A stretch of DNA of 64,000 bases from Gallaecimonas sp. GXIMD4217 (lineage in GTDB: Bacteria; Pseudomonadota; Gammaproteobacteria; Enterobacterales; Gallaecimonadaceae), in assembly GCF_038087665.1 (NCBI RefSeq), contig NZ_CP149925.1, positions 1,860,870 to 1,924,869 of the forward strand, given 5' to 3'. Every line of letters begins with the position of its first letter. The stretch's first letter is position 1. The notes beneath the pieces are model-generated. The model was not told the DNA's origin. It was given only the letters and a program-made list of their open reading frames with translations, and did no database searches. Made by a program: the position numbers and the translations under genes. Shown here one piece after another: positions 24,983 through 32,867 of this stretch.

Positions 24983-25059
<77 letters not shown>

Positions 25060-25147
25060 TCAGTTTGGGTGTTCCGCCGTTCTTAACGGCGCAGGCCCGC
25101 CTGAGGCCTGTTTGTCTTGCCTGCTCTTGGAGCCGGAAAGACCAAGT

Positions 25148-25224
<77 letters not shown>

Positions 25225-25314
25225 TCAATTTGGGTGTTCCGCCGTTCTGGACGGCGCAGGCCCGCCTGAGGCCTGTTTGCTTTCCTCGCTCTATTGGAGC
25301 CAGAAAAACCAAGT

Positions 25315-25391
<77 letters not shown>

Positions 25392-29169: not shown

Positions 29170-29595
29170 ATGACGGACATCCGTATCATCCAGGCCGATC
29201 TGGCCCTGGCTGGCGCGGTGGAAGCGGCCCTGCCGGAATTCGCCCGCAAGCGCACCGTCGACCAGTACCTGGCCCGTTTCCAGGGCCGGCCCCATCTGTG
29301 CCTGGTGGCACTGGTGGATGGCCGGGCCGCGGCCTACAAGCTCGGCTACCGGCTGGACGAGGGCGTTTTCTATTCCTGGCTCGGCGGGGTGCTGCCACCC
29401 TGGCGCCGGCTTGGGCTGGCGCAAAGGCTGCTGGATGCCCAGGAAAGCTGGGCAAGGCGCCACGGCTACCAGCGTATCGAGGTCAAGTCCACCCCGGAAT
29501 TCCCCACCATGCTGGCCTTCCTGGCCAAGAACGGCTACCGGTCCCAGGGCGGCCCTGGCCGCAAGCTGCTATTCGTCAAGCCGCTAGCCAGATAA
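29170..29595 (+). CDS. GNAT family N-acetyltransferase
   Basis: A 141-residue GNAT domain. The acetyl-CoA-binding motif A is 'SWLGGVLPPWRRLGLAQRLL' and motif B is in 'FPTMLAFLAKNGYRSQG'. The acceptor is unknown. GGGAG precedes the ATG. Its 3' end overlaps the convergent MAPEG gene by 20 bp. Confidence 0.88.
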   Translation: MTDIRIIQADLALAGAVEAALPEFARKRTVDQYLARFQGRPHLCLVALVDGRAAAYKLGYRLDEGVFYSWLGGVLPPWRRLGLAQRLLDAQESWARRHGYQRIEVKSTPEFPTMLAFLAKNGYRSQGGPGRKLLFVKPLAR

Positions 29596-29977
29596 GGCGC
29601 AGCCACAGCGCCAGCAGCACCAGGTTGGACAGCAGGAAGATCCCGAGCCGATGCCCCACGTGGTTGTAGGTCAAATGAATGGCGCTGTGGACGGCCCGCA
29701 GCGCCACGTAGCCCCAGGCCAGAGCCAGGGCAACCGGCTCCGAGCCCTCGCCCAGGGCCAGGAAGGCCACCACGGCGGTGTAGAACAGCACCGGCATCTC
29801 GAACAGGTTGCGGTAGTTGTTGCCGGCCTGCACCACCTTGTCCGGCATGTCACCATCCATCAGCTTGTACTGGCGCAGCCTGACCTCGCCGCTGCGGGCG
29901 GCCTTGATGCGCCGGATCAGCATCAGCACGGCCACCGCCGTGGTCAGCAGCAGCAGCGCAAAAGCACTATGGAGCAT
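29576..29977 (-). CDS. MAPEG family membrane protein
   Basis: A 133-residue four-helix membrane protein. It has the MAPEG pattern 'QAGNNYRNLFEMPVLFYTAV' and 'RAVHSAIHLTYN', seen in eicosanoid and glutathione metabolism homologues; bacterial versions are of unknown substrate. ATG 29977 has AGAGGTG upstream; the longer frame beginning at 30058 is not supported. Confidence 0.85.
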   Translation of the reverse strand: MLHSAFALLLLTTAVAVLMLIRRIKAARSGEVRLRQYKLMDGDMPDKVVQAGNNYRNLFEMPVLFYTAVVAFLALGEGSEPVALALAWGYVALRAVHSAIHLTYNHVGHRLGIFLLSNLVLLALWLRLIWLAA

Positions 29978-30140
29978 GTTCACCTCTGGCTTTATTCCAT
30001 TTCCACCCCAGCCTACACCAAAACCACCACGGCTCATGAAAAACACGTTGTTTTTCAACGCTTATCCACCTTTGCTAAATGCCGCCACATGGTGAATGAT
30101 AAGGAGGCCAGTGTAGCCAAGGAGCCCGGCCGCAGCCGCC

Positions 30141-30977
30141 ATGCGATACCATTTCAACAATTTCACCCTGGATTGCGAGCAGCTCAGCCTGACCTTGGCT
30201 GACCACTGCCTGACCCTGGACGCCCGCATGGCGCGGCTGCTGACGCTGCTGATCGAGGCCTATCCCGACCACCTCGGCCAGCGCCAGCTCCTGGAGCAGA
30301 TCTGGCCGGACACCGTGGTGTCGAACTGGTCCATTTCCAGGCTGGTGTCCGATACCCGCAAGCTCTTTCAGGAACACGGCATTGATGAGCCGGTGATCCA
30401 GACCCTGCACGGCCGGGGTTATCGCCTGGCCCCCGAGCTCAGGGCGCAGCTCAAGGCCAGCCCCGGCGAGGCCACCCCCGATGTTGGCCACAACAGGCGC
30501 CCGTACCGGCTGCTGGCCGCAGCCGCCCTGCTTGCCGTCCTGGCCGGGTCGGCATATCAATGGGCGACCAAGGGTAAGGACGCTTCGCAGCTGGTCATCG
30601 GCGAGGCCGGGGATACCAAAGGCCGGATCCTCTGGGTGGACGACCACCCACAGAACAACGGCCAGGAAAGGCAGTTCCTGGCGCAGCGCCGCATCGCCGT
30701 CTACACCACCGCCAGTACCGAGGAGGCCCTGATCTTGCTGTCCATGTACAGCTACGACGCCGTGATCTCGGACATGGGCAGGAACGGGGACAACCTGGCC
30801 GGTCTCAAGCTGCTCAAGACCATGCGCGCCCGGGGCGACGACACGCCCTTCTTCCTCTACACCATACTGCCGTCATCCGCCCAGACCCAGCTGGTGGCAA
30901 GCCATGGCGGCCAGGGGGTCGCGGTAAAATCCCAGGCCCTCTATGAGCAGCTGCTGCCGTTGTTCCAGGAGCAATAA
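30141..30977 (+). CDS. Winged-helix protein with TM helix and C-terminal receiver domain
   Basis: A 278-residue protein with an unusual order. Residues 1-100 are an OmpR/CadC-type winged helix ('LLTLLIEAYPDHLGQRQLLE', 'VSNWSISRLVSDTRKLFQ', 'IQTLHGRGYRLAPE'). Residues 122-141 form one hydrophobic helix (LLAAAALLAVLAGSAYQW) after a basic HNRRPYR. Residues 160-278 are a response-regulator receiver: acidic pocket D167/D168 ('ILWVDDHP'), phosphoacceptor D211 ('VISDMGR'), T241 and K263. Regular OmpR proteins place the receiver first and have no TM helix; CadC proteins have no receiver. By the positive-inside rule the receiver would be outside the membrane. Target genes unknown. Only start in frame is ATG 30141, with no well-spaced ribosome site. 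Confidence 0.85.
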   Translation: MRYHFNNFTLDCEQLSLTLADHCLTLDARMARLLTLLIEAYPDHLGQRQLLEQIWPDTVVSNWSISRLVSDTRKLFQEHGIDEPVIQTLHGRGYRLAPELRAQLKASPGEATPDVGHNRRPYRLLAAAALLAVLAGSAYQWATKGKDASQLVIGEAGDTKGRILWVDDHPQNNGQERQFLAQRRIAVYTTASTEEALILLSMYSYDAVISDMGRNGDNLAGLKLLKTMRARGDDTPFFLYTILPSSAQTQLVASHGGQGVAVKSQALYEQLLPLFQEQ

Positions 30978-31199
30978 CGGCGTCGCCAACCTTCTTGCCC
31001 GGCGCATGTAAACCTTTGTTTTTTATAGATTCAAAAACTTTCAAAAGGTTTCACTGCCCCCCTTTCTCCATCCCAAGTAAATCTGGAATTACGCCCTGGC
31101 CGGGCGTACCCAGAACAGTCCCGATGGACGGGGCGATGCCAGTCCCTGGAACCGCCTTAAGGCACCGGACATGGAACTTGACCGCAGATGGAGACGCAG

Positions 31200-32867
31200 A
31201 TGAAAAAGTCCCTTTTGGCCACCCTGGTGGCCCTGAACCTGGCCGCCTGCGGCGGCAGCAGCGACAGCACCCCGGATAACACCACCACCCCGCCGCCACC
31301 GCCGCCGGCCGAAACCGCCCTGACCGGCTTCTTCGTCGACAGCCCGGTGGCCGGCATCGACTACAGCACCGAGACCCATAGCGGCGTCACCAGCCCGGAA
31401 GGGGCCTACGACTACGAGGAAGGGGAAACCGTCACCTTTTCCATTGGCGATCTGATCTTCCCGGCCGTCGCCGCCAGTGGCATGGTGACGCCGGCGGACA
31501 TCGCCGCCGGAGACGAAACCACCCAGACCAATATCCTGCAGATCCTGCAATCCCTGGATGCCGATGGCGATCCGAGCAACGGCATCAGCCTGATCGACGG
31601 CGCCGCCGACGCCTTTGCAGGCACCAGCCTCGATATCACCTCCAGCGACTTCGACAGCCAGGTCACCGAGGTGCTGAGCACCCTAGGCGACGGCATCGAC
31701 CTGGTCAGCGAAGAGCAGGCCCAGGCCCACTTCCAGCAGTCCCTGCGCCAGCAGCTCCAGGGCGCCTGGCTGCTCAGCGAAGGGGACGGCATGCGCAACG
31801 TGCTGACCTTCATCGACGATGAGCATTACATCATCATCCACGAGCACAGCGACGAGCCCGGCACCGAGGGCAGCCAGGCCGCCGGCTCGGTGGAATTCGG
31901 CAACTACGACTGGGATCCCGACACCGGCAACGTCGAACTGAGCCTGATCGGTGAATCCGACGGCTGGGGCGGCCTTTATGACGGCGGCCCGGCGGTGAAT
32001 ACCCTGGCCATCAGCGGCGACACCCTGACCCTCGGCTTCGTCGATGGCGAAGTCAATTTCACCCGCGTCAGCGACGCCGACAACCCCCTGATCGGCTCCT
32101 GGGCCGCCGACGACCAGGAAGACGACAACATACTGGTGCTGACCTTCCTGTCCGACAGCCAGTACGTCATCGCCCACAGCAACAGCCCCGACGCCTACCA
32201 AGGCCAAGAGGTGCAGCCCCTGGCCGGCGAGTTCGGCAGCTACAGCTACTCGGGCGGTGAACTCATGGTCCAGGGTGTCACCGTCGACACCGACGGCCCC
32301 GGCGGCCTGTTCGATGGCGAAGAAGGGCCGCTGCGGGCCGAGCTGGACTTGGAAAGCTGGGGTGAGATCGTCTTCTACGAGGACGGCGATGCCGACTTCG
32401 CCATGAGCCGGGTGGGTACCTTTGCCACCACCCTGGTGGACGACCCCAATGCCGGTGCCGAAGGCGAGCTGGGCACCATCACCACGGTGCGCCATTTCGG
32501 CGGCTTCCAGGATCTGCAGCTCGACGGCACCCTCTGGCAGATGGACGTGACCTTTGCCGCCGTCAACCAGGCCGAGTGCGCCGTCACCTTCGAGGACGGC
32601 AGCTGCGGCTCCACCTTCGAGGTACAGCTGCTGGCCGACGGCAGTGGCGTGATAGAGGACATCCATGAAGACAACCCCCTGCCCCTGGAGTGGCGACTGA
32701 GCACGGCCGGCACCATCGAGATCGACTTCAGCGACGGCGAACTGGGCCTGCACATGGTCATCGCCAAGCTGGCTTATGACGACGAACAGCACCATGTGCT
32801 GCTGGGGCTGTATTCCGATGAGGGCGAGGAAGACTCCCTCTGGCAGACCGTCATGCGGCCCCAGTGA
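31200..32867 (+). CDS. Repetitive acidic lipoprotein
   Basis: A 555-residue protein with lipoprotein signal MKKSLLATLVALNLAAC (lipobox LAAC, Cys17) followed by a Gly/Ser and a Pro-rich linker. Residues 185-275 and 297-385 are two copies of one beta-rich unit (G-W...LTF..D..Y.I.H..S...EFG.Y....GGL.DG), and a more diverged unit may follow. The N part (about 40-175) has a carboxypeptidase-regulatory-like start. The mature protein is strongly acidic. Probably anchored at the cell surface or outer membrane; function unknown. GGAG precedes ATG 31200. Confidence 0.8.
   Translation: MKKSLLATLVALNLAACGGSSDSTPDNTTTPPPPPPAETALTGFFVDSPVAGIDYSTETHSGVTSPEGAYDYEEGETVTFSIGDLIFPAVAASGMVTPADIAAGDETTQTNILQILQSLDADGDPSNGISLIDGAADAFAGTSLDITSSDFDSQVTEVLSTLGDGIDLVSEEQAQAHFQQSLRQQLQGAWLLSEGDGMRNVLTFIDDEHYIIIHEHSDEPGTEGSQAAGSVEFGNYDWDPDTGNVELSLIGESDGWGGLYDGGPAVNTLAISGDTLTLGFVDGEVNFTRVSDADNPLIGSWAADDQEDDNILVLTFLSDSQYVIAHSNSPDAYQGQEVQPLAGEFGSYSYSGGELMVQGVTVDTDGPGGLFDGEEGPLRAELDLESWGEIVFYEDGDADFAMSRVGTFATTLVDDPNAGAEGELGTITTVRHFGGFQDLQLDGTLWQMDVTFAAVNQAECAVTFEDGSCGSTFEVQLLADGSGVIEDIHEDNPLPLEWRLSTAGTIEIDFSDGELGLHMVIAKLAYDDEQHHVLLGLYSDEGEEDSLWQTVMRPQ

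What the first reader, a model, noticed from the sequence alone, without database searches (positions are those of the whole stretch)
30141..30977. Inverted response regulator: CadC-type winged helix, TM helix, then a complete receiver domain
Seen: OmpR-type winged helix (1-100), one hydrophobic helix (122-141) after basic residues, and a receiver with all core residues (D167, D168, D211, T241, K263). The 'WVDDHP'/'SDMGR' form belongs to a receiver subfamily I recall as mostly stand-alone. Known: OmpR has the receiver first and no TM; CadC/ToxR have no receiver. Inference: by positive-inside topology the receiver would be in the periplasm, where no ATP or histidine kinase acts, so it may bind a ligand or small phosphodonor, or the helix may only be peripheral.
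Basis: partly seen in the sequence, partly recalled or inferred. Interest (0 to 1): 0.75.

Follow-up and report, generated by a model that had tools for sequence, protein, structure and literature searches.

The report
Membrane gene regulator with misplaced receiver
A bacterial gene switch anchored in the cell membrane carries, on what is probably its outward-facing side, a domain type that normally works inside the cell; dozens of related bacteria keep the same arrangement, which suggests that the domain was reused as a sensor for conditions outside the cytoplasm.

Summary
In detail: window 30141-30977 encodes an OmpR/CadC-type winged helix, one hydrophobic helix and a C-terminal receiver. 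It belongs to a conserved family: 69 distinct members, window included, all have this order, and their receivers form one clade (57 rows, support 99/96). First, the receiver is not 'complete' as a family: D167, D168, D211 and T241 are kept in 69 of 69, the switch Lys (K263) in 17 of 69; an Arg three residues after the phospho-Asp position is kept in 69 of 69. Second, the periplasmic placement gains support from charge bias (50 for, 2 against, 17 ties) and a nearly Cys-free receiver half (2 Cys in 8,724 residues), though Cys absence alone is not diagnostic. Best reading: a ToxR/CadC-like one-component membrane regulator whose envelope sensor is a repurposed, probably kinase-independent receiver. 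A lipoprotein gene downstream is a possible target or partner. Topology, ligand and targets are inferred, not shown; no structure could be predicted.

The parts
30141..30977 (+). whole gene: wHTH - single hydrophobic helix - receiver, 278 aa
30141..30434 (+). N-terminal OmpR/CadC-type winged helix (residues 1-98)
   Evidence: Pfam Trans_reg_C at 24-96, E 7.9e-10; CadC chain 5ju7_A, phmmer E 2.3e-6
30510..30566 (+). predicted transmembrane helix (residues 124-142), after RRPYR
   Evidence: mean Kyte-Doolittle 1.62; a hydrophobic segment (1.29 to 3.02) in the linker of 69 of 69 members
30606..30974 (+). C-terminal receiver domain of the WVDD...SDMGR type (residues 156-278)
   Evidence: Pfam Response_reg at 163-264, E 2e-9; family alignment
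30639..30644 (+). acidic pair D167-D168
   Evidence: 69 of 69 members
30771..30782 (+). D211 (phospho-acceptor position) to R214, Arg at D+3
   Evidence: D and R in 69 of 69 members and in 18 of 18 aligned non-fused receivers; Met or Leu at D+3 in 30 of 30 canonical receivers
30861..30863 (+). T241
   Evidence: 69 of 69 members
30927..30929 (+). K263, switch-Lys position, not conserved in the family
   Evidence: Lys 17, Asp 25, Thr 11, Glu 10 of 69; Lys in 30 of 30 canonical receivers
31200..32867 (+). downstream co-oriented gene for a predicted lipoprotein (LAAC lipobox), 555 aa; candidate target or partner; the ORF list starts it at 31188, the start at 31200 is my choice
   Evidence: no Pfam match up to E 0.05

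Best explanation
It is a ToxR/CadC-like membrane-integrated one-component transcription regulator whose C-terminal sensor is a receiver domain moved to the periplasmic side. The N-terminal winged helix stays in the cytosol and binds promoters; the single helix spans the membrane. The receiver keeps its acidic pocket (D167, D168, D211), T241 and a subfamily Arg at D+3 but not the switch Lys, and works as an envelope sensor or dimerisation module. It probably responds to a divalent metal, an anion or ligand in that pocket, or to an envelope protein, rather than to a histidine kinase. The change alters dimerisation or position of the winged helix and so transcription, possibly of the lipoprotein gene beside it. 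Shown: domain order, conservation, residue patterns, one receiver clade, charge bias and Cys depletion. Inferred: membrane topology, sensing mode, DNA targets.
For: 69 of 69 distinct members (window included) have wHTH before receiver with a hydrophobic segment between. A second segment over 1.2 occurs in 2 of 69, both Ala/Val/Pro-rich. K+R in the 15 residues before and after the helix: means 2.70 and 1.30; more before in 50, fewer in 2, equal in 17 of 69. CadC-like controls: 23, 0 and 5 of 28 rows, 3 rows being duplicates. Eleven N-terminally anchored receivers of the same type lean the other way: more after the helix in 10, equal in 1. Cys: 139 in 6,634 wHTH residues, 2 in 8,724 receiver-to-end residues; 18 in 3,341 residues of 30 canonical receivers; 1.03% in conserved neighbouring gene models. 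D167, D168, D211, T241 and R214 in 69 of 69, while mean column identity of the full-length alignment (49 of the members) is 32%. Fused receivers on one side of a branch with 99/96 support, 57 fused and 18 other rows. A co-oriented next gene with a lipobox in 13 of 64 loci against 34 of 828 other gene models. Close homologues of the window lipoprotein (E < 1e-100) in 9 of 394 genomes, 7 of which also hold the regulator, itself in 16 of 394.
Against: No structure was predicted and no topology measured. The window's own helix is only moderately hydrophobic, 1.62, and in 14 of 69 members more than 1% of 200 linker shuffles reach the observed value. Invariant pocket residues could equally mean that phosphotransfer still occurs, which would need the cytosol. 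Cys absence is weak evidence alone: post-helix parts of CadC-like controls have 51 Cys in 9,507 residues; 10 of 15 non-fused relatives, thought cytosolic, also lack Cys in the receiver; the canonical control contains several orthologues that share one Cys; and 49 of the 139 wHTH Cys lie in one column. All counts are on related sequences. In Pseudoalteromonas and most Shewanella loci the next gene is not a co-oriented lipoprotein.
Confidence: 0.57

Rival explanations
1. The hydrophobic helix does not cross the membrane (peripheral, re-entrant or buried), so both domains are cytosolic and the protein is a membrane-associated atypical response regulator with inverted order, controlled by phosphorylation or a cytosolic ligand.
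For: D, D, D and T invariant in 69 of 69; non-fused relatives are on TIR and DUF4062 proteins and on N-terminal anchors whose charge bias puts the receiver inside in 10 of 11; helix only 1.62 in the window.
Against: A hydrophobic segment of 1.29 to 3.02 in 69 of 69 linkers; charge bias like that of CadC-like proteins; the receiver half nearly Cys-free; switch Lys in 17 of 69 only.
Confidence: 0.23
2. The periplasmic receiver senses nothing by itself: it is a dimerisation or stability module, or a handle for an envelope partner or for regulated proteolysis, as for ToxR/ToxS and TcpP/TcpH (the proteolysis part recalled).
For: The layout resembles ToxR-like proteins, for which a census describes partner proteins that guard against proteolysis or help dimers form (passages of PMC10269533); a lipoprotein neighbour in 13 of 64 loci.
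Against: Pocket residues D167, D168, D211, R214 and T241 are invariant, more than a plain scaffold should need; the neighbour is not constant.
Confidence: 0.15
3. A chance or decaying fusion without regulated function.
For: Found in 16 of 394 genomes of the order and not found in 2 of the 5 same-genus genomes searched.
Against: One receiver clade across gamma- and alphaproteobacteria with invariant residues and the same order in 69 of 69.
Confidence: 0.03

Closest known systems
ToxR/CadC-like transmembrane transcription regulators
   Same: N-terminal OmpR-type winged helix, linker, one helix with positive residues before it, C-terminal part beyond
   Different: The C-terminal part is a receiver domain
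OmpR/PhoB response regulators
   Same: The same two domain types, Trans_reg_C and Response_reg
   Different: Reverse order, a hydrophobic helix between, switch Lys not conserved, Arg at D+3
Receivers of the WVDD...SDxxR type on TIR, DUF4062 or N-terminally anchored proteins (group named here)
   Same: W before the acidic residues and Arg at D+3 in 18 of 18 aligned rows; no Lys at the switch position in those 18, though L138 has one by spacing
   Different: No winged helix; T241 not conserved (Thr in 5 of 18); predicted cytosolic in 10 of 11 anchored ones examined; on the other side of a 99/96 branch
Hybrid transmembrane regulators with two-component domains (census PMC10269533)
   Same: DNA-binding, membrane and receiver parts in one protein (passages read)
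   Different: Those discussed in the passages are mainly combined with histidine-kinase domains; none is found here

Membership tests
ToxR/CadC-like transmembrane regulator | N-terminal OmpR-type winged helix | tested here: met
   Trans_reg_C E 7.9e-10 at 24-96; CadC chain E 2.3e-6
ToxR/CadC-like transmembrane regulator | single transmembrane helix after the DNA-binding domain, N-in | tested here: met
   by prediction only: hydrophobic segment in 69 of 69; charge bias 50 for, 2 against, 17 ties
ToxR/CadC-like transmembrane regulator | C-terminal domain in the periplasm | tested here: inconclusive
   charge bias and Cys depletion agree, but Cys absence is not diagnostic; no direct test
ToxR/CadC-like transmembrane regulator | binds DNA from the membrane | not testable with these tools
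   needs experiment
OmpR/PhoB response regulator | receiver N-terminal to the winged helix | tested here: not met
   winged helix first in 83 of 83 ORFs (69 distinct) that match both family profiles
OmpR/PhoB response regulator | receiver core D, D, D, T, K | tested here: not met
   as a family: D, D, D, T in 69 of 69 but K in 17 of 69; the window protein itself has K263
OmpR/PhoB response regulator | phosphorylated by a histidine kinase | not testable with these tools
   no kinase domain in the protein; of the flanking genes I scanned three: a GNAT, a MAPEG and the lipoprotein without a match; the rest of the window was not scanned for kinases
Hybrid TTR / hybrid two-component system | histidine-kinase domains in the same protein | tested here: not met
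   only Trans_reg_C and Response_reg pass the Pfam cut-offs
WVDD...SDxxR receiver group (named here) | W before the acidic residues, Arg at D+3, Lys not conserved | tested here: met
   W and Arg in 69 of 69 fused and 18 of 18 aligned others; L100, L103 and L138 also have both; L138 has a Lys at the switch spacing

The most novel reading that the evidence does not exclude
A receiver domain has been moved across the membrane and turned into an extracytoplasmic sensor: its acidic metal-binding pocket, with the positive charge now supplied by an Arg at D+3 in place of the switch Lys, reads a periplasmic metal or anion and drives a ToxR-like regulator without any phosphorylation.
Probability: 0.35. 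Interest if true: 0.82.

Novelty: new variant of a known kind. Interest (0 to 1): 0.62.

Why it matters
Receivers are treated as cytosolic phospho-switches (established knowledge, recalled). A conserved family in which the receiver is, by prediction, outside the cytoplasm would show that the fold and its acidic pocket can serve as a sensor without kinase input. It would add a sensor class to transmembrane transcription regulators, of which few have been studied (passage of PMC10269533), and it can be tested with one topology assay and a few pocket variants.

Tried and rejected
A conserved operator: a perfect palindrome at 30037-30057 is the only exact copy in the genome; the 200 bases upstream in 64 loci were scanned for perfect inverted repeats with arms of 7 or more, 8 of 64 have one, none with this sequence, so I did not use it. 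A neighbour constant over the whole family: none; besides the family itself, six gene clusters are shared by three or more genus labels, all three each. Plasmid spread: one record, receiver part only, 36% identity. Anti-phage defence: no PADLOC match for the window protein; of three relatives scanned only the TIR part of one matches. PDB matches to pentatricopeptide repeats I set aside as repeat artefacts by judgement; the best receiver in the PDB by profile is 3kht_A, E 4.5e-8. The lipoprotein count depends on the pattern: a stricter lipobox gave 8 of 64 against 23 of 828, a looser one 13 of 64 against 34 of 828; gene models there are mechanical, and in L053 and L066 the central model was on the wrong strand. 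Papers (9 searches): 'periplasmic receiver domain' 0, 'membrane-anchored response regulator' 0, response regulator with N-terminal DNA-binding domain and C-terminal receiver domain 0, DUF4062 with receiver domain and TIR 0. Searches (15 of 33 listed) listed papers; of PMC10269533 I read passages, of the others only the listing and the start of the abstract. So I found no description in this open library; most subscription papers are not in it.

Full report
The gene. Window 30141-30977 encodes a 278-aa protein with Trans_reg_C at 24-96 and Response_reg at 163-264, the reverse of the OmpR order. Between them lies one hydrophobic segment, residues 124-142, mean Kyte-Doolittle 1.62, after RRPYR. 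The nearest solved winged helix by sequence is CadC, 5ju7_A, E 2.3e-6.

A family. Among the 59 genomes searched first (the window's own included), three others hold full-length relatives: two of the same genus and one of another family, 50, 49 and 45% identical. Two further same-genus genomes gave no full-length match. A search of 394 genomes of the order gave 25 with a match at E 1e-20; 16 of these hold the protein, one of them cut by a contig end, and the other 9 match the winged-helix side only. A scan of genome contigs found 115 stretches that encode a relative and kept 80 loci. Over the loci then held, 83 ORFs match both domain profiles, always winged helix first; 69 are distinct, the window's included. 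Named ones come from Shewanella, Ferrimonas, Microbulbifer, Rheinheimera, Pseudoalteromonas, Paraglaciecola, Pseudidiomarina, Marinobacter, Simiduia, Luteimonas and Pseudoxanthomonas and from Sphingopyxis, Sphingomonas, Altererythrobacter, Croceibacterium and a Parvularcula bin. A tree of 57 fused and 18 other receivers puts the fused ones on one side of a branch with support 99/96; that call warns of few columns and long branches. Rows of alpha- and gammaproteobacteria mix inside the fused part, with modest support, which suggests transfer (inference). A search with the receiver profile found a match at 1e-15 in 7 of 398 genomes of the phylum, so this receiver type is rare there.

The receiver is of an unusual type. 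In the 69, W165, D167, D168, N172, N173, D211, R214 and T241 are invariant. The switch-Lys position holds Lys in 17, Asp in 25, Thr in 11 and Glu in 10. In 30 canonical receivers (the best-scoring 30 of 619 matches in ten genomes that hold the family), Lys is there in 30 of 30 and the residue three after the phospho-Asp is Met or Leu in 30 of 30; it is Arg in 69 of 69 fused and 18 of 18 aligned non-fused receivers. Those 18 have no Lys at the switch position (Arg in 3), but the alignment there is gappy for the actinobacterial rows. Three receivers left out of that alignment (L100, L103, L138) also have the Arg; L138 has a Lys at the switch spacing and WADD for WVDD, so the loss of Lys is not complete in the wider group. 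T241 is not conserved in the non-fused ones (Ala 6, Thr 5, Cys 5, Ser 2). That the Arg takes over the charge of the Lys is my inference. The non-fused proteins include TIR-receiver (L137; L102, whose receiver is under the Pfam cut-off), DUF4062-receiver (L096), proteins with N-terminal hydrophobic anchors (L094 without any Pfam match) and a very long open frame with two receivers.

Topology. The 15 residues before the helix hold more K+R than the 15 after in 50 of 69 members, fewer in 2, equal in 17 (means 2.70 and 1.30). CadC-like proteins from the same loci give 23, 0 and 5 of 28 rows, three of them duplicates. Eleven receivers with N-terminal anchors show the opposite, 10 more positive after the helix and one equal, so in them the receiver is predicted inside. 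A second segment over 1.2 occurs in 2 of 69 linkers, both low-complexity, so a hairpin is unlikely. The helix lies 13 to 33 residues before the GRILWVDD motif; the variable part of the linker is before it, 19 to 118 residues. The winged-helix part has 139 Cys in 6,634 residues, 49 of them in one column, and the receiver-to-end part 2 in 8,724. Comparisons: 18 in 3,341 in the 30 canonical receivers, several of which are orthologues sharing a Cys; 7 in 1,568 in 15 non-fused relatives, 10 of which have none; 1.03% in conserved neighbouring gene models. This fits an oxidising compartment but does not prove it: post-helix parts of CadC-like controls have 51 Cys in 9,507 residues, exactly two in 14 of 25 proteins. 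The helix is weak in some members: in 14 of 69, more than 1% of 200 linker shuffles reach the observed hydrophobicity. These sequences are related, so the tests overstate independence.

Neighbours. The next gene downstream, 31200-32867, encodes a 555-aa predicted lipoprotein without a Pfam match. A co-oriented next gene with a lipobox is found in 13 of 64 loci (8 of 18 genus labels) against 34 of 828 other gene models; a stricter pattern gives 8 of 64 against 23 of 828. Close homologues of this lipoprotein (E < 1e-100) are in 9 of 394 genomes, 7 of which have the regulator (hypergeometric 1.4e-9, not corrected for kinship). In three of the seven the match lies within about 0.6 kb downstream on the same strand, in two on the same contig tens of kilobases away, in two on another contig. 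Weaker homologues are common: 56 of 394 genomes at 1e-12. In Pseudoalteromonas and most Shewanella loci the neighbour is different. So the lipoprotein is a candidate target or partner, not an established one.

How it most likely works. I read it as a ToxR/CadC-like one-component regulator with a receiver as its envelope sensor. ATP and histidine kinases do not act in the periplasm (recalled), and the switch Lys is not kept, so I expect the conserved acidic pocket to bind a divalent metal or an anion, or the domain to meet an envelope protein, and the change to alter dimerisation of the winged helix. Only the anatomy and the counts above are shown. The main rival is a cytosolic receiver with a non-spanning helix.

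Known or not. The census of transmembrane transcription regulators (PMC10269533, passages read) reports response-regulator domains in 9.2% of them and discusses hybrids with kinase domains; I saw no wHTH-helix-receiver family in those passages, and did not read its tables or supplements, which could list it. Searches returned no papers. I therefore call it a new variant of a known kind.

Noticed in passing
window 24983-25391, strand -: Three tRNA-Met genes in tandem; ORFs with repeated GPDLNRRPSGYEPDELPGCSTPR text over them are probably spurious readings of the tRNA array.
   Followed up: partly
window 30037-30057: Perfect 9+3+9 palindrome upstream of the gene, the only exact copy in the genome; not found upstream of 64 related loci scanned.
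   Followed up: partly
window 29170-29592 (+) and 29579-29989 (-): GNAT acetyltransferase and MAPEG-family genes beside the regulator.
   Followed up: no
L060:8871-10706 and L069:8851-10662: In two Sphingopyxis loci the gene directly downstream is a second winged-helix protein with a hydrophobic helix.
   Followed up: no
L137:838-1842; L102:7224-8384; L096:7242-8360: TIR-receiver and DUF4062-receiver fusions with the same receiver type.
   Followed up: partly
L141:1-3330: A very long open frame with two receivers of this type.
   Followed up: no
L075-L079, L082 (Shewanella): The linker between winged helix and receiver grows to 116-160 residues.
   Followed up: no
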